Assembly: GCF_001305575.3 (NCBI RefSeq)
Contig: NZ_CP012373.2
Location: forward strand, 868,001 to 932,000
DNA from: Beggiatoa leptomitoformis
GTDB lineage: Bacteria > Pseudomonadota > Gammaproteobacteria > Beggiatoales > Beggiatoaceae
Length of the DNA stretch: 64,000 nucleotides
Direction: 5' to 3'
Of the stretch, positions 1,541 to 13,245 are shown in pieces. Position numbers and translations under genes: made by a program. How positions within the stretch are numbered: the first letter of the stretch is position 1; every line of letters starts with the position of its first letter. Below the pieces are notes generated by a model. It had not been told where the DNA came from and made no database searches. It worked only from the letters and a program-made list of their open reading frames with translations.

Positions 1541-2233
1541 ATGACCACTGAATACCGTGACATTATTTATGATGGTTTGTGGAAAAATAATACAAGCCTT
1601 GTGCAACTGTTGGGTTTATGCCCGTTACTTGCAACGACAGGTACATTGATTAATGGGCTAGGATTAGGCATTGCAACAACGTTAATTTTGATTGCAACGA
1701 ATGCAACCGTTTCCCTTATTCGTCATATTGTACCGAACGAAGTACGTATTCCTATTTTTGTGTTAATTATTGCTGCTTTTGTCACGGCTGTAGAATTGTT
1801 GATTAAAGCCTTTTACTACGATTTATATTTAGTGTTGGGGATTTTTATCCCTTTGATTGTTACTAATTGCTTTGTGATTGGACGGGCTGAGGCATTTGCT
1901 TCACGGCATTCTGTGGATAAAGCCATGTTAGATGGTTTAATGATGGGGTTAGGCTTTACTTTTGCGTTGGTATTATTAGGCGGATTGCGGGAATTATTGG
2001 GGCATGGGACTTTATTTGCGCAGGCTGAAATCATGTTTGGCGAATTTGGAAAAACCATGACTTTAACTATTTTTGAGAATTATAAAGGGTTTTTAATCGC
2101 CATCCTGCCACCGGGTGCATTTTTTGGGTTAGCACTATTGGTTGTATTGAAAAATATGATAGACCAACGCTTAAACAAGCGCGTTGTAAAGGTGACAACA
2201 ACACAGGAAAAAACCGTTTTAACCGCTTCTTAG
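1541..2233 (+). CDS. rsxE: Rnf/Rsx electron transport complex subunit E
   Basis: Integral membrane subunit of the ion-translocating NADH:ferredoxin oxidoreductase (Rnf, called Rsx in enteric bacteria). The 230 residues form about six hydrophobic helices. The N-terminus ([13 protein letters not shown], then [11 protein letters not shown]) and the central [13 protein letters not shown] segment are hallmarks of RnfE. The family usually sits at the end of an rnfABCDGE operon. Here no other rnf gene is visible on either side, so the gene is detached or the operon is split. The Shine-Dalgarno site is poor (GCGG about 16 bases upstream). In diazotrophs Rnf can feed low-potential electrons to nitrogenase; that link is an inference. 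Confidence 0.95.
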
Positions 2234-5297: not shown

Positions 5298-5399
5298 ATT
5301 CGTGAATTTGTGAGGGAGATAATATATAACTGTTATGGGCGTGGTGTGAGGGGAATATCAAGGTTAGTGCTTTATTATACTTTGTGTTGGAGTTGAGAG

Positions 5400-6824
5400 A
5401 TGAAATTACGCCGTGCTTTACAAGAGTGTCAGGATACTTTTAAAAAACTGAATACACATTCTTTACGTGTACTAGATGATTTTCGTCTTGTTGCAACCGT
5501 TAAAGCCTTACCCGATTTTACAATGGAAGGTAAAACCCCTAAAGCGAATGAGTTGTTATTATTATATGAAAAATTTCAGCAGGTTATTCTTTCTAAACAG
5601 TGGCAGGACATAAGTCCGCGTGATTGGCGACGGGCGGCATGGGTGTTGTGGTATGGCAAACAGGGCAGCACCTTGGCAGAAAATGAGCTTTTTTTAAAGC
5701 AATTTTGGCGACAAGTACGTGGTAATCCTGCGGCTGTAAAACGTTTAATTCGTGTTTATCTACGTGAGTTTGACCAAAATCCTCCTAATTTAACCGCCAT
5801 TGCCCAGTTTATTCTTGCACAGGTGTTAAAAGCAAAGCCTGATTCTATGTTAGCCCGTTGGCAACAGTATAATCAGTTATATCAATTATTTATCCCGCAA
5901 GGAAATGGAGTGAATAAGCTGGCTCAAGCCTGTTTACGGGCGGATACCGTGCAAACGTTGGGAGCAGCGGGATTAACAGGAGAATTGTTAAGCAGTGGTT
6001 ATGCACGAGCGGCTTATCGCGAAGCATTGGAAATGTTGGAAACGTATTTATTGGACGGTTCAGAAAAAGAGTTAATTTGTTTGTTGGCATGGAGTGATGA
6101 TGGGGGGCGTTTACGTTATGCGAGCTGTCGGCGTGAATTGGCACAGGCTTTATTATTACCTTGGCAGTTAAACGAACCAAACCCATTAATTAGGCAACGG
6201 ATTCAGATATTCTTATTACAATATTTACAAGACCCTCGCGTTTCACCCGCTTTATGGCAGGGTGTGCAGACAGAGGCATTACAAGTGTTTTATCGGTGGA
6301 TGGTAGGGTCAACCTTAGAAACCTTTTTTAGTATTTTAGACCAGTGTGCATTGGATGCGCAGTGGCGATACCGACGGGCATTTTGGTGGGCATATTATGA
6401 GCGTCAATATATTGATGAAGCATGGTTAGCTGTTGGGAAAACCATTCAAAAATTTTTAGCAAAACGTCCAGAATTGGCGCAAAGCTTACAAAATGCTTAT
6501 GGGACATTGGAAGGGGCGGGGGTAAGAGGCAATCAGGCTGTATTATTGTTTCGAATTCGGGGGGTTATCGTTGCAGAATGGAGTCATGGCGGAAAATGTC
6601 ATATTTGGTTAACGGATAGTGAAGATAAGCCGCCGTTTTATCAGGAAACGTATTTGCGCGACAGGGTAACTGCAAATTCATTAAAATTGAAAGAAAAAAA
6701 TCGGCAGGCGGGTATCAGTCACTACAGCAATGAGGCAGGCGGTTGGCAAACGGATTTAGAGCGTTTCATTTATGAACAAACGCGCATTGATATGTCTCCC
6801 GCAGCGTATATGCCTAAAATTTAG
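5400..6824 (+). CDS. EH-signature domain protein (ZorC-like), without Zorya partners
   Basis: A 474-residue soluble protein. Its C-terminal half matches my recollection of the EH_Signature domain: DPR...W at about 278-286, an RW...FF...W..R..FW.AYY segment at about 299-332, then GVIVAEWSHGGKCHIWL with E393, and ISHYSNEAGGWQTDLERFI with H441. The family is named for a conserved Glu and His, and the 48-residue spacing is similar to that in ZorC. ZorC is the DNA-binding subunit of type I Zorya anti-phage systems, which also need ZorA, ZorB and the ZorD helicase. None of those lies nearby: the flanks are a lipid kinase and two small membrane proteins. The ATG at 5400 has GGAG 6-9 bases upstream. 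It overlaps the converging gene by 11 bases. Confidence 0.75.
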   Translation: MKLRRALQECQDTFKKLNTHSLRVLDDFRLVATVKALPDFTMEGKTPKANELLLLYEKFQQVILSKQWQDISPRDWRRAAWVLWYGKQGSTLAENELFLKQFWRQVRGNPAAVKRLIRVYLREFDQNPPNLTAIAQFILAQVLKAKPDSMLARWQQYNQLYQLFIPQGNGVNKLAQACLRADTVQTLGAAGLTGELLSSGYARAAYREALEMLETYLLDGSEKELICLLAWSDDGGRLRYASCRRELAQALLLPWQLNEPNPLIRQRIQIFLLQYLQDPRVSPALWQGVQTEALQVFYRWMVGSTLETFFSILDQCALDAQWRYRRAFWWAYYERQYIDEAWLAVGKTIQKFLAKRPELAQSLQNAYGTLEGAGVRGNQAVLLFRIRGVIVAEWSHGGKCHIWLTDSEDKPPFYQETYLRDRVTANSLKLKEKNRQAGISHYSNEAGGWQTDLERFIYEQTRIDMSPAAYMPKI

Positions 6825-7242
6825 GTGTCCACCAATAAATTGCCAGCGCAACAATGATAATAATCAGGCTAATCCCAATCATTCGCATAATATGATGATA
6901 TTGTTCTATTTTATTCTCTATAGCCAGCAGTAGATAGTTTTCACTCGGTTGTTCGCCCTGATAGGCAATAACAACGGTATCAGTGCTTTTTATTTGGTTA
7001 AATAGCGTGGAGGATAAATAAACGACGTTTTGATAAGTCTGATGATTTTCTTCAAACTCGTAAGCGATTTGATGGAGAGAGGCTTTACTGTTTTTTACAG
7101 TTACACGTCCATTAACCCGTTTACCTTCTTTTTGTAACATTTGCAGGTCAGCAATTTTGCTGGAGAGAAAAACAAACAACATCCCGTCTATCATGAGTAT
7201 AGTAACAATTGTTGCCAGTAAAAACAGTATATTAGCGGTCAT
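6814..7242 (-). CDS. two-helix membrane protein, DUF3592-like
   Basis: A 142-residue protein with a hydrophobic helix at each end (about residues 5-27 and 117-138) and a soluble domain between them. The middle part (QIAYEFEENHQTYQNVVYLSS, then DTVVIAYQGEQPSENYLL) has the strand pattern of DUF3592 proteins, in which a beta domain is held between two membrane helices. Function is unknown. It converges on the EH-signature gene, their 3' ends overlapping by 11 bases. Family assignment is by pattern only. Confidence 0.7.
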   Translation of the reverse strand: MTANILFLLATIVTILMIDGMLFVFLSSKIADLQMLQKEGKRVNGRVTVKNSKASLHQIAYEFEENHQTYQNVVYLSSTLFNQIKSTDTVVIAYQGEQPSENYLLLAIENKIEQYHHIMRMIGISLIIIIVALAIYWWTPKF

Positions 7243-7452
7243 AATATTCTCTTGATTCAGTAATCAAAAACAGATTTTCGCGGAGTAACGCTTTTTATTT
7301 ATTAATCTGTACACATTATCATAGTTCTCATTTTTAGGTTGAAATACATAAAAATGAAAAGACTTGTCTTTATATTCAGTCTCTTTAACTTAGTGGCTTT
7401 TAGATGAAAAGCCCTTGTTTTGTTCCTCACATATCACTTAATAATGCACATT

Positions 7453-7980
7453 ATGATTGAAAAAAAAATTGAACGCATAATTTTTGCTAGCCGTTGGTTA
7501 CTTGCGCCATTTTATTTGGGTTTGGTTGCTACTCTATTAGTGTTATTGGTTAAATTCTTTTTTAAATTCGCGGATATGTTGTTTAGTATCTGGTCTATGG
7601 AAGGGACAGCATTGGTGTTGCCCATTTTGGGATTAGTTGATTTAGTGCTGGTTAGCAACCTTTTAATTCTTATTATTTTTAGTGGTTATGAGAACTTTGT
7701 TTCTAAAATTGAGGAGGCAAAAGAACATACAGACCGTCCTGAGTGGATGGGCAATATTGATTATGGTTCTTTAAAAATCAAGGTGATTGGTTCTATCGTG
7801 GCAATTTCTTCTATTGATTTGTTGAAAGCCTTTTTTGCGATTGAGCATTACAACAAAGAGAACTTAATGTGGTTGGTGATTGTTCATCTCACTTTTGTCG
7901 TTTCTGGGGTTTTATTTGCGATAATGGAGAGAATTTCTCATCCAGCCCATCCTGTTAGCGCGGTTAATCAGGAACATTAA
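7453..7980 (+). CDS. YqhA/UPF0114 family membrane protein
   Basis: An integral membrane protein of 175 residues with about four hydrophobic helices. The opening IERIIFASRWLLAPFYLGL and the motif VDLVLVSNLLILIIFSGYENF are characteristic of the UPF0114 (YqhA) family. Later KIKVIGSIVAISSIDLLKAF is also conserved. The family role is not established. The ATG at 7453 is chosen because the conserved MIEKKIERIIFASRW begins there; upstream in-frame TTG 7420 and ATG 7444 are possible, and none has a good Shine-Dalgarno site. Confidence 0.88.
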   Translation: MIEKKIERIIFASRWLLAPFYLGLVATLLVLLVKFFFKFADMLFSIWSMEGTALVLPILGLVDLVLVSNLLILIIFSGYENFVSKIEEAKEHTDRPEWMGNIDYGSLKIKVIGSIVAISSIDLLKAFFAIEHYNKENLMWLVIVHLTFVVSGVLFAIMERISHPAHPVSAVNQEH

Positions 7981-11157: not shown

Positions 11158-13245
11158 ATGTATAGAAAGATAATATTAAGTGGCTTACTGATATTGGGTT
11201 TAGTGCCGATTGCAAACGCAATAGAAATGCCTTTGTTGGGTAAATCACCTTTGATTAACTTGGTGAATTTTAATATTCTTCCCGATTTTCTATCGTTTAG
11301 TGGCGGTGGGAGTGTGGATGGTTTGCCATTTCAGTCAGAATTAAATGTGATTGAAGGACAAGCGATAACATTAAAAACCATTTTAACGGTGAGTTCTAAA
11401 ATAGCGCAAAACCCTGCGGATATTTTTGTTTTAGCTGAATATAATGGTGCTACATTCGTCATCAGCCATGACAATGATACGGGTGCAATCAAACTGGAAG
11501 CATGGCAAGGAATTACACAGATTAAACCTTTTATGTCTGTAGAATCCTTTCTATCCCCCGTAGAAGTGCCTATCTATGAAGGGGCTTTGTTAAAGGGGGG
11601 AGTAACGGTTTATGTGGGTTACCGTTGGGATGCTTATGTAGGAACATCGCCAGCTATTAATATTCGTGTCAATAGCCAAACACCGACCGCCTTAACGGGG
11701 GATTTTATCGCACAACTGGGATTTTTACCGAATCCTGATGGCTTTGGTTTTGAAAACTATGGCGATGTGCAAGCAACCGATTTAAACGACCAAGACATTG
11801 TTGATTTTTTGGGACGCGCACAAGCCTGTCATTTAACCGCTGATGGTGCATGTGTTTTAAAAGCAACGGCACAACGACAAAAACAGGAGTGGTTGGAAGG
11901 TATGACAGGTGGGCATTGTTATGGAATGGCACTAGCAAGCACTGCTTTATTTACAAAAAAGATAAAGCCTGAACAATATCAGGAGAATATAACACAACCC
12001 ATTCGATTGTTGAAAAACAGTATTCGTAAGGATATTGCTCGTTATTTTGTCATGCAGAGTTTAACCAATATTCAAGCCTTAATTAATGCAACAAAAACGC
12101 CTAATGAAGTGTTAGATGCAGTCATAACAGGCATGAAAAATGGCGACCCTATTGCGATTCTCACTATCTACAACAATCAGAAAGAAGGTGGACACGCGAT
12201 TACACCGTATGCCGTACAGGATAAGGGCAATGGTGAAGTGTGGATTTATGTCTATGATAACAATTATCCTGATGATAGTTCACGAATTGTAAAGATTAAT
12301 CGAGATATGAATACATGGGTTTATGAGGGAGCAACCATTAATCCAAGTGAACCTGCTTCAAGCTATTTTGGAGATGCCGTTACTAAAACGTTAGGGGCTA
12401 TTCCACTATCTGCTCACGATAATCCCGGTATTTATCAGCTAGATGTTGCAGAGTTACGGTTACATTCTAAACAAGCGCGAATGCTGGTAACAAATGCAGC
12501 AGAACAACGGATTGGTTTTGATTTTACAACAGGGGTTTTTATTAATGAAATTGCAGGTGCTGAATTTCGGTTGAGTTTAGATGACGGTACGCCCCCTGCC
12601 TATTTAGTTCCATTAATGGCATTTACACCACCCAGTAATAGTAGTGATGCGTTAGACCAATATTTACAAGTAATTCAAGACCAATCTTTAAGTGTTGAAA
12701 TAGGCTTATTAGAAACCTCAGCCCTTGCAACCCAAGCACCTTTTGGATTTAGTATTAAGGGAAAAGAAGGTTTTGCGGGTTTTGAAAATATTCAATTGTC
12801 AGCTAGCGAACATTTGTATGTTGGCGTACATCCATCAGGACGTTTTGTTTATATTGGTAGCAATACCCAACTCACTAACTTACCCACCGTCTTTTTAACC
12901 ATCAACGATGATAATACACAAGCCAGTTATGAGTATGAAATTAGCAATATCCAGTTAGCACAAGGACAAGAATTTGCACTGCTGTTTAACGAAGATAACA
13001 GCTTATTAGTCATGAGTGTTTCCAAAGATGGTGACAATGTCGCACGTTTAGACAGCAGTGCTTACAGCTTGAAAATGAAAAAAGTCAATGCTGAAGGACA
13101 AGCCATTGCTCAACAACAACAGATAACATTACCTGCTAATGCACGTTCAACCTTACGTGCTATTACATGGGAAAGTGAAAACACAAGAACGCGTCAACTT
13201 TCTGAAAATATTGGTAAAATTGAGATAACAACAATCAGTAAATAA
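11158..13245 (+). CDS. secreted protein with candidate papain-like Cys-His-Asp domain
   Basis: A 695-residue exported protein. Residues 1-21 are a signal peptide (basic start, hydrophobic core, IANA cleavage-like end). A beta-rich N-terminal region (about 60-175) is followed by an alpha/beta domain with GGHCYGMALAS (C254), GGHAITPYAV (H346) and IYVYDNNYP (D367). The Cys at a helix start, the His on a strand preceded by Gly-Gly, and the Asp/Asn on the next strand are the order seen in papain-fold peptidases and C39-like proteins. The C-terminal 300 residues look like two beta-sandwich domains. The upstream gap (10951-11157) is very AT-rich and AAGGA lies 12 bases before the ATG. No activity is proven; it could be a protease, an amidase or an inactive binding module. 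Confidence 0.7.
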   Translation: MYRKIILSGLLILGLVPIANAIEMPLLGKSPLINLVNFNILPDFLSFSGGGSVDGLPFQSELNVIEGQAITLKTILTVSSKIAQNPADIFVLAEYNGATFVISHDNDTGAIKLEAWQGITQIKPFMSVESFLSPVEVPIYEGALLKGGVTVYVGYRWDAYVGTSPAINIRVNSQTPTALTGDFIAQLGFLPNPDGFGFENYGDVQATDLNDQDIVDFLGRAQACHLTADGACVLKATAQRQKQEWLEGMTGGHCYGMALASTALFTKKIKPEQYQENITQPIRLLKNSIRKDIARYFVMQSLTNIQALINATKTPNEVLDAVITGMKNGDPIAILTIYNNQKEGGHAITPYAVQDKGNGEVWIYVYDNNYPDDSSRIVKINRDMNTWVYEGATINPSEPASSYFGDAVTKTLGAIPLSAHDNPGIYQLDVAELRLHSKQARMLVTNAAEQRIGFDFTTGVFINEIAGAEFRLSLDDGTPPAYLVPLMAFTPPSNSSDALDQYLQVIQDQSLSVEIGLLETSALATQAPFGFSIKGKEGFAGFENIQLSASEHLYVGVHPSGRFVYIGSNTQLTNLPTVFLTINDDNTQASYEYEISNIQLAQGQEFALLFNEDNSLLVMSVSKDGDNVARLDSSAYSLKMKKVNAEGQAIAQQQQITLPANARSTLRAITWESENTRTRQLSENIGKIEITTISK

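What the first reader, a model, noticed from the sequence alone, without database searches (positions are those of the whole stretch)
5400..6824. Orphan ZorC-like EH-signature protein without Zorya genes
The sequence shows E393 in VAEWSHGGKCHIWL and H441 in ISHYSNEAGGWQTDLERFI, with the RW..FF..W..R..FW segment before them, as expected for the EH_Signature domain of ZorC. ZorC normally acts with the ZorAB motor and the ZorD helicase/nuclease. None is next to this gene: the neighbours are a lipid kinase, a DUF3592-like membrane protein and a YqhA protein. It may be a relic, a protein that works with a distant ZorAB, or a stand-alone EH-signature system with its own role.
Basis: partly seen in the sequence, partly recalled or inferred. 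Interest (0 to 1): 0.72.

Follow-up and report, generated by a model that had tools for sequence, protein, structure and literature searches.

The report
Zorya defence genes scattered across chromosome
The gene is a true ZorC anti-phage protein that is not an orphan: its three partner genes are present elsewhere on the same chromosome, hundreds of kilobases apart, so a defence system normally found as one gene cluster is here kept as separate single genes.

Summary
ORF 5400-6824 is a genuine ZorC by profile (PF15611 9.5e-46; PADLOC ZorC 5.7e-97) and fold (best match: solved ZorC 8r68, Z 19.3). The same scattered zorA, zorB and zorC occur in the same 9 of 42 family genomes. Their distances agree, motor residues are invariant and the one pair tested shows purifying selection. 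In a class sample 10 of 13 other EH-signature loci are linked zor operons. A second scattered set and a partly scattered one in another family suggest about three separations; well-supported branches force fewer in two of three trees. Where zorD is missing, ZorC lacks its E-x-[ST]-H motif (0 of 6, against 16 of 18 with zorD). My reading: a complete, co-inherited, dispersed Zorya I-like system that cluster rules should miss. Phage defence is inferred, not shown.

The parts
5400..6824 (+). zorC, EH_Signature protein, 474 aa; genome position G000:C1:873400-874824
   Evidence: PF15611 9.5e-46; PADLOC ZorC 5.7e-97; model best matches solved ZorC 8r68, Foldseek 4.5e-08 and VIA Z 19.3 over 360 residues
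6576..6587 (+). codons 393-396, E-W-S-H: first part of the EH signature
   Evidence: alignment of 26 ZorC proteins; sequence
6720..6722 (+). codon 441, second conserved histidine (H..W)
   Evidence: alignment; sequence
5389..5392 (+). GGAG, likely ribosome-binding site of zorC; about 100 bases lie between zorC and the divergent lipid-kinase-like gene, so zorC looks like a single-gene unit
   Evidence: sequence; inference
   Evidence: not thought to be part of the system
7420..7980 (+). TIGR00645 (YqhA-type) protein; beside zorC also in G001, 88% identical
   Evidence: not thought to be part of the system

Best explanation
The gene is the ZorC subunit of a complete Zorya type I-like set whose four genes have been taken apart and are kept as separate genes on a Beggiatoa-type chromosome. 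Shown: zorA, zorB, zorC and zorD are all present with uninterrupted ORFs and strong profile matches; in the two genomes with chromosome-size contigs they are about 0.5 Mb or more apart; the ion-channel Asp/Thr/Ser, the helicase motifs and the EH motif are kept; zorA, zorB and zorC occur together in 9 of 42 family genomes. Inferred from Zorya I work: ZorA and ZorB form a peptidoglycan-anchored, ion-driven 5:2 motor that senses injury of the envelope during phage DNA entry; the ZorA tail then recruits ZorC and ZorD, which damage DNA. The parts are made from unlinked promoters. A perfect palindrome of the LexA-box form about 60 bases before zorD in both Beggiatoa-type genomes suggests that the effector alone is raised by DNA damage (weakly supported). 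In the subclade that has no zorD1, ZorC lacks its E-x-[ST]-H motif, so the motif probably serves ZorD.
For: ZorA1 9.1e-80, ZorB1 3.9e-84, ZorD1 1.6e-298 in the same genome; the ZorD match includes the N-terminal part, model 7-367 at 2.8e-77. Of 45 zor genes of the family whose surroundings were held (64 kb for the window, up to 19.9 kb for the others), 43 have no other zor gene in the stretch; the two that do are zorB and zorC of G015, 1.1 kb apart. zorA, zorB and zorC occur in the same 9 of 42 family genomes. Distance matrices agree, r 0.86-0.97, Mantel p 1e-4. Set 1 is one clade in the A, B and C trees (support 83/81 only for A). dN/dS 0.084, 0.037, 0.061 for A, B, D and pN 0.094 against pS 0.746 for C, G000 to G001. 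ZorB Asp24 is kept in 12 of 12, ZorA Thr138 and Ser179 in 13 of 13, ZorD DE and GKT in 7 of 7. Solved Zorya chains align: ZorB 8vvn 5.8e-24, ZorA 8qyd 8.3e-15, ZorD 8qy7 3.1e-87. Controls: 10 of 13 other EH loci in a class sample are linked; of the four other MotA/ExbB-type genes of this genome, three have an ExbD/TolR-like gene next door (by eye).
Against: No experiment, no phage test, no expression data. Five of the nine genomes (one subclade) lack zorD1, although the tested Zorya I has four genes. The nine genomes are related, so co-occurrence is not nine independent events. Most are MAGs on many contigs, and several zor genes lie near contig ends. The fourth MotA/ExbB-type gene of this genome has a TonB-like gene beside it but no ExbD/TolR in the stretch held, so motor partners can part here in general. 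No shared upstream word among zorA, B, C and D. The LexA-like box is absent before G015 zorD and could not be checked against SOS genes.
Confidence: 0.72

Rival explanations
1. The scattered ZorA, ZorB and ZorC have been recruited to a housekeeping envelope job (for instance a gliding or surface motor of filamentous and giant sulfur bacteria) and no longer defend against phages.
For: Surroundings that look like ordinary chromosomal genes (by eye); no zorD1 and no E-x-[ST]-H in 5 of 9 genomes while motor residues are kept.
Against: Four genomes have zorD1 and an EH motif; helicase motifs were checked in three of those zorD1 genes. The set is missing from 33 of 42 family genomes, which is patchy for a core motor. 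The window ZorC keeps the ZorC fold.
Confidence: 0.18
2. The zorA, zorB, zorC and zorD genes of this genome are not partners of each other: each is a leftover or a separately acquired gene.
For: They are unlinked; no shared upstream word was found.
Against: Same 9 of 42 genomes for A, B and C; agreeing distances; set 1 one clade in each tree; purifying selection.
Confidence: 0.06
3. Orphan relic: zorC left behind after loss of a Zorya operon.
For: No zor neighbour in the window.
Against: Partners exist in the genome. zorC is full length, EH kept, pN/pS about 0.13 between the two same-genus genomes.
Confidence: 0.02
4. Stand-alone EH-signature protein with a role of its own, not tied to a ZorAB motor.
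For: Position in what looks like a single-gene unit.
Against: Each of the 9 family genomes with this ZorC also has ZorA1 and ZorB1; distances correlate with ZorA at 0.965.
Confidence: 0.02

Closest known systems
Zorya type I (zorABCD), e.g. Azospirillum oryzae plasmid NZ_CP054621.1 and Zymomonas pZYMOP01
   Same: All four protein families; the Azospirillum operon matches my set-1 profiles for A, B, C and D at 3e-85, 6.9e-67, 1.2e-67 and 1.9e-211. Motor and helicase residues agree with solved Zorya chains.
   Different: There the four genes are side by side; here they are about 0.5 Mb or more apart. Activity not tested here.
ZorC protein family (PF15611 EH_Signature; solved ZorC 8r68)
   Same: Profile over residues 113-452 and near whole-length PADLOC model; same fold; E-x-[ST]-H kept.
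   Different: 14% identity to 8r68; encoded away from its partners.
Zorya types II and III (ZorAB with ZorE, or with ZorF and ZorG)
   Same: A ZorAB motor with a separate effector (PMC11890865, passages).
   Different: This genome's best matches are to ZorA1, ZorB1, ZorC1 and ZorD1 models; ZorE, ZorF and ZorG were not searched for.
TolQR, ExbBD, MotAB motors
   Same: Related 5:2 ion-driven motors (PMC11890865, abstract).
   Different: ZorA has a long cytoplasmic tail and matches ZorA models; the genome's four other MotA/ExbB-type proteins match ZorA models only at 0.0026-0.05.

Membership tests
ZorC (EH_Signature) protein family | Significant match to EH_Signature / ZorC profiles | tested here: met
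   9.5e-46, 5.7e-97
ZorC (EH_Signature) protein family | ZorC fold | tested here: met
   pLDDT 83.7; 8r68 is the only Foldseek match at or under 1e-3, 4.5e-08; VIA Z 19.3, rmsd 5.8, 360 aligned, next row 8.5
ZorC (EH_Signature) protein family | E and H signature residues | tested here: met
   E393, H396, H441; that E and H matter in E. coli ZorC is recalled, not read
Zorya type I system | ZorA, MotA-like with long cytoplasmic tail, in the genome | tested here: met
   612 aa, 9.1e-80; Thr and Ser columns kept; aligns to solved ZorA 8qyd at 8.3e-15
Zorya type I system | ZorB, MotB-like with the ion-carrying Asp and an OmpA domain | tested here: met
   3.9e-84; Asp24; OmpA PF00691 1.6e-07
Zorya type I system | ZorD, SNF2-type helicase with the ZorD N-terminal region | tested here: met
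   1.6e-298; N-terminal model 7-367 at 2.8e-77; 8qy7 3.1e-87. Nuclease activity not tested
Zorya type I system | Genes in one cluster (PADLOC groups genes by maximum_separation, PMC8565338, passages) | tested here: not met
   zorC 0.873, zorD 1.449, zorB 3.103, zorA 3.949 Mb; so this is not a canonical Zorya I locus
Zorya type I system | Protection against phage | not testable with these tools
   needs an experiment

The most novel reading that the evidence does not exclude
Dispersed Zorya is a distinct, core-like form of immunity that arose about three times, with independent control of its parts: motor and adaptor expressed on their own, effector ZorD induced by DNA damage. In one subclade ZorA, ZorB and ZorC persist without ZorD1 and without the E-x-[ST]-H motif, i.e. 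a motor-adaptor complex that has changed effector or purpose.
Probability: 0.25. Interest if true: 0.85.

Novelty: new variant of a known kind. Interest (0 to 1): 0.68.

Why it matters
Defence systems are usually found by gene clustering; PADLOC groups genes by a maximum separation (PMC8565338, passages). A complete multi-gene system scattered over a chromosome should be invisible to such a rule (I did not run PADLOC itself), so some 'orphan' defence genes may be parts of whole systems. It suggests that a Zorya set can be kept without an operon. It also gives a natural experiment on the EH signature: E-x-[ST]-H is present in 16 of 18 ZorC proteins whose set has a ZorD (4 of 4 set 1a, 4 of 4 set 2, 8 of 10 linked) and in 0 of 6 whose set has none, which makes a link between the EH motif and ZorD directly testable.

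Tried and rejected
PF01618 (MotA_ExbB) missed zorA: its four matches in the genome are other motor genes. Three have an ExbD/TolR-like gene beside them; the fourth has a TonB-like gene and no ExbD/TolR in the stretch held (names by eye). A ZorA model was needed to find zorA.

A sequence search of ZorC against solved structures gave only one match, at 0.23, taken as chance; the fold search found ZorC 8r68. The rows below it (Z 8.5 or less, mostly helical-repeat proteins) were not used.

Shared upstream words among zorA, B, C and D of G000 and G001: none of 7-9 bases in three or more genes. A common site is therefore not supported.

LexA reading of the zorD palindrome: one perfect copy in 923,703 bases of this genome, about a fifth of it; two perfect copies among 13 core sites in 770,514 bases of held family stretches, both before zorD. 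Short motif expressions for recA, lexA/umuD, uvrA, uvrB, dinB, recN and ruvA found nothing in the stretches tried, so the box could not be tied to SOS. G015 zorD has none.

ZorD of the other family (f116): the candidate scanned, G271 C155, scores 1.6e-127 to a ZorD model and 6.4e-109 to DpdE, so its status is unresolved; the three f116 orphan ZorC proteins, all with E-x-[ST]-H, were left out of the EH-against-ZorD count. Also left out: the G368 C43 locus, because its contig ends 264 bases after zorC. Not counted as set members: weak ZorB matches (about 1e-12 to 1e-15) in ten other family genomes and still weaker OmpA-type ones; weak ZorA matches (2e-6 or worse) in seven other family genomes.

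Second histidine: I first read H441 as deleted in the five zorD1-less ZorC proteins; another gap placement leaves a His shortly before the Trp in three of them, so I claim only the lack of E-x-[ST]-H.

Phage, viral and E. coli collections were not searched; in the plasmid collection 3 records matched, one over 80% of the query. The genome-contig scan used one peptide pattern and confirmed 7 of 41 stretches, so it is not exhaustive. Literature: ZorC/Zorya/EH_Signature, 9 papers listed; 'Zorya' with 'Beggiatoa', 0 papers; Zorya/ZorA with orphan, dispersed, scattered, unlinked, none of the 15 listed of 783 holds 'Zorya'; EH signature/ZorAB/ZorCD, 15 listed of 169, four of them on Zorya or PADLOC; Beggiatoaceae with defense systems and phage, 2 papers; Zorya with Thiotrichales, Thiomargarita, Achromatium, Beggiatoales, none of the 8 listed of 26 holds 'Zorya'. 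All seen as listings except PMC11890865 (outline, abstract, passages) and PMC8565338 (passages). Only open-licence papers are held, so this is no proof of absence in print. The first Zorya paper and the other Zorya structure paper are recalled, not read.

Full report
What the window gene is. ORF 5400-6824 (+) encodes 474 aa. It matches Pfam EH_Signature at 9.5e-46 over residues 113-452 and seven PADLOC ZorC models, best 5.7e-97. NCBIfam had no match. An AlphaFold2 model from an alignment of 8 sequences has mean pLDDT 83.7, pTM 0.78. Its only Foldseek match at or below 1e-3 among solved structures is ZorC 8r68 (4.5e-08); the second aligner gives Z 19.3 over 360 residues at 14% identity, against 8.5 for the next row. 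E393, H396 and H441 are present.

It is not an orphan. The window lies in a one-contig genome of 4,265,317 bases with one copy of this gene. A ZorB model found one strong place, C1:3102674-3103567 (7.8e-82); a ZorA model found C1:3948899-3950707 (1.5e-63); ZorD models found C1:1449320-1452199. Whole-protein scans of the ORFs give ZorA1 9.1e-80 (612 aa), ZorB1 3.9e-84 (310 aa) and ZorD1 1.6e-298 (965 aa). The ORFs (turned into genome coordinates) are zorC 873400-874824 +, zorD 1449311-1452208 -, zorB 3102644-3103576 +, zorA 3948887-3950725 -. Nearest pair: zorC and zorD, about 0.57 Mb. In the same-genus genome G001 (three contigs) the four genes lie at about 2.253 (C), 1.651 (D), 3.446 (B) and 2.952 Mb (A) of a 4.24-Mb contig; nearest pair about 0.49 Mb.

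How general it is in the family. Seven of the nine genomes could be named: Candidatus Albibeggiatoa (G006), Thiotrichales bacterium BB31 (G014), Candidatus Venteria ishoeyi HSG18 (G016), Thiomargarita sp. MAGs (G007, G013, G030), Beggiatoa sp. SZUA-411 (G015) (matched by identical proteins). The window's own genome and G001 are unnamed; that they are Beggiatoa is inferred from this kinship. In 42 family genomes this ZorC occurs in 9, ZorA1 in 9 and ZorB1 in 9, and the nine are the same (ZorC, which also finds set-2 ZorC; ZorA; ZorB). If genomes were independent, two identical sets of 9 in 42 would have chance 1 in 445,891,810; they are not independent. Of 45 zor genes of the family whose surroundings were held, 43 have no other zor gene in the stretch, and the other two are zorB and zorC of G015, 1.1 kb apart with an oppositely oriented gene between. 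Some stretches are short because contigs end: G015 zorA is cut by its contig end, G013 zorB has 138 bases left on one side, G030 zorB 285 and G016 zorA 307.

A second set. Four genomes (G005, G014, G016, G030) hold another zorA, zorC and zorD; its zorB was found in G005, G014 and G016, not in G030 at 1e-10. Within each genome they lie on different contigs, without a zor neighbour in the stretch held. In the family f116 an EH protein stands without zor genes in the stretch held in three genomes (G156 177 bases from a contig start, G271, G368 about 1 kb from a contig end), with a zorA-zorB pair elsewhere in G271 and G368, and zorA and zorB apart in G156; that these belong together is inferred. 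f116 genomes have linked zor loci as well. In the A, B and C trees each of the three sets groups together. Support for set 1 is 98/97 (C), 97/98 (B) and 83/81 (A). The best trees need three changes between scattered and linked, but well-supported branches force only 2 (C), 1 (B) and 3 (A), and parts of the C and B trees are unresolved. So three separations are suggested, not proved.

Control for linkage. Of 369 class genomes 10 have an EH_Signature match, this genome among them. Of the 13 EH loci in the other nine genomes, 10 sit in zor operons (A, B, C with or without D; for G271 C233 no A was recognised, the contig ends there) and 3 do not, all in f116. A Zymomonas and an Azospirillum plasmid also carry A, B, C, D side by side. 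Within the window's genome there are four other MotA/ExbB-type genes: three have an ExbD/TolR-like gene next to them, the fourth has a TonB-like gene but no ExbD/TolR in the stretch held. So motor pairs mostly stay together here, with one exception that counts against zor being unique.

Signs of function. Between G000 and G001 dN/dS is 0.084 (A), 0.037 (B) and 0.061 (D); for C synonymous sites are saturated (pS 0.746, pN 0.094). Synonymous distances are large throughout, so these are rough. Four shared neighbour genes give 0.033, 0.031, 0.032 and 0.061 in the same call; a fifth, the small protein after zorC, is far more diverged (44% identity, pN 0.374). The nine-genome distance matrices correlate: A-B 0.864, A-C 0.965, B-C 0.873, each p 1e-4, as common descent would give. 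The ZorB Asp that PMC11890865 (passages) calls critical (D24) is Asp in 12 of 12 ZorB proteins; the ZorA Thr and Ser columns are kept in 13 of 13; ZorD DE and GKT in 7 of 7 (G006 zorD was not in that set). No neighbour within 9 kb is common to the nine genomes; G000 and G001 share four genes beside zorB, and the small protein and the TIGR00645 gene beside zorC, but nothing found beside zorA or zorD; a few other pairs share single genes. So the genes persisted while their surroundings changed.

EH motif and ZorD. Set 1 falls into 1a (G000, G001, G006, G015), which has zorD1 (G006 split over two contig ends), and 1b (G007, G013, G014, G016, G030), where none was found. 1b is one clade in the C and B trees (100/100, 98/95) and weakly in A (86/93). 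G007 and G013 have no ZorD match at 1e-20 or at 1e-3 with a second model; the other three have set-2 zorD. E-x-[ST]-H is kept in 4 of 4 of 1a, 4 of 4 of set 2 and 8 of 10 linked ABCD loci (not in G271 C233 and Zymomonas), and in 0 of 5 of 1b (G007 keeps the E alone) and 0 of 1 linked ABC locus without zorD beside it, G272 C145. Fisher's test on 16 of 18 against 0 of 6 gives 2e-4, but it is about two events, not six. The three f116 orphan ZorC proteins keep the motif, with ZorD status unresolved. I read this as the motif serving ZorD; inference.

Control of expression. zorC looks like a single-gene unit: divergent from a lipid-kinase-like gene, convergent with the next gene. The zorD genes of G000 and G001, in unlike surroundings, both have TACTGT-N8-ACAGTA about 60 bases before the start codon; none of the other 43 zor genes has even CTGT-N8-ACAG in the 400 bases, or fewer where the contig ends, before it. 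The form equals the LexA box as I recall it from E. coli. It was not validated here.

Mechanism. From PMC11890865 (abstract and passages): ZorAB is a 5:2 ion-driven motor; peptidoglycan binding, the ZorA tail and ion flow are important; recruitment of ZorCD by ZorAB has been reported. The Fig. 2 legend lists subsets of the four genes and gives a significant p value for the whole Zorya I only; the figure itself is not held. I propose that the dispersed parts assemble the same machine. Steps shown here: presence, open reading frames, co-occurrence, constraint. Steps inferred: assembly, sensing, recruitment, DNA damage, defence.

Verdict. ZorC family membership is met. Zorya I protein content is met, Zorya I gene clustering is not met, activity is untested; I therefore call it a new, dispersed variant of Zorya I. 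Interest 0.68.

Noticed in passing
L136 about 12251-12270 and L137 about 7771-7790 (upstream of zorD in G000 and G001): Perfect TACTGT-N8-ACAGTA palindrome about 60 bases before zorD in both genomes; the only perfect copy in 923,703 bases of this genome. Looks like a LexA box (recalled form).
   Followed up: partly
L112 6826-8859 (+), beside zorA of this genome: ORF with Mrr_N (8.7e-17) and AAA_5 (9.7e-11) domains, McrB-like by my reading, convergent with zorA, 28 bases apart. A possible second DNA-restriction gene; not evident beside zorA in the other genomes (first residues only).
   Followed up: no
window 1541-2233; L017 1153-1851; L178 about 606-1235: An RnfE-like gene (name by me) lies within about 6 kb of zor genes in this genome, in G015 and beside the linked zor operon of G271, and was found in no other held stretch over 3 kb. 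Perhaps a trace of an old common site, perhaps chance.
   Followed up: partly
L113 14022-16513: Three tandem ORFs of 271, 271 and 279 aa that begin with the same 60 residues, about 4 kb from zorB.
   Followed up: no
L121 7239-10685 (G016): The second zorB of Ca. Venteria follows a small-GTPase-like ORF and, further up, a roadblock-like ORF (names by eye), which recalls gliding regulators.
   Followed up: no
G031 C258, G029 C72 (family genomes): Weak ZorA-like and ZorB-like matches lie close together; perhaps another motor pair.
   Followed up: no
window 6814-7242: The small protein after zorC is only 44% identical between the two same-genus genomes while the zor genes and other shared neighbours are 79-93% identical.
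   Followed up: no
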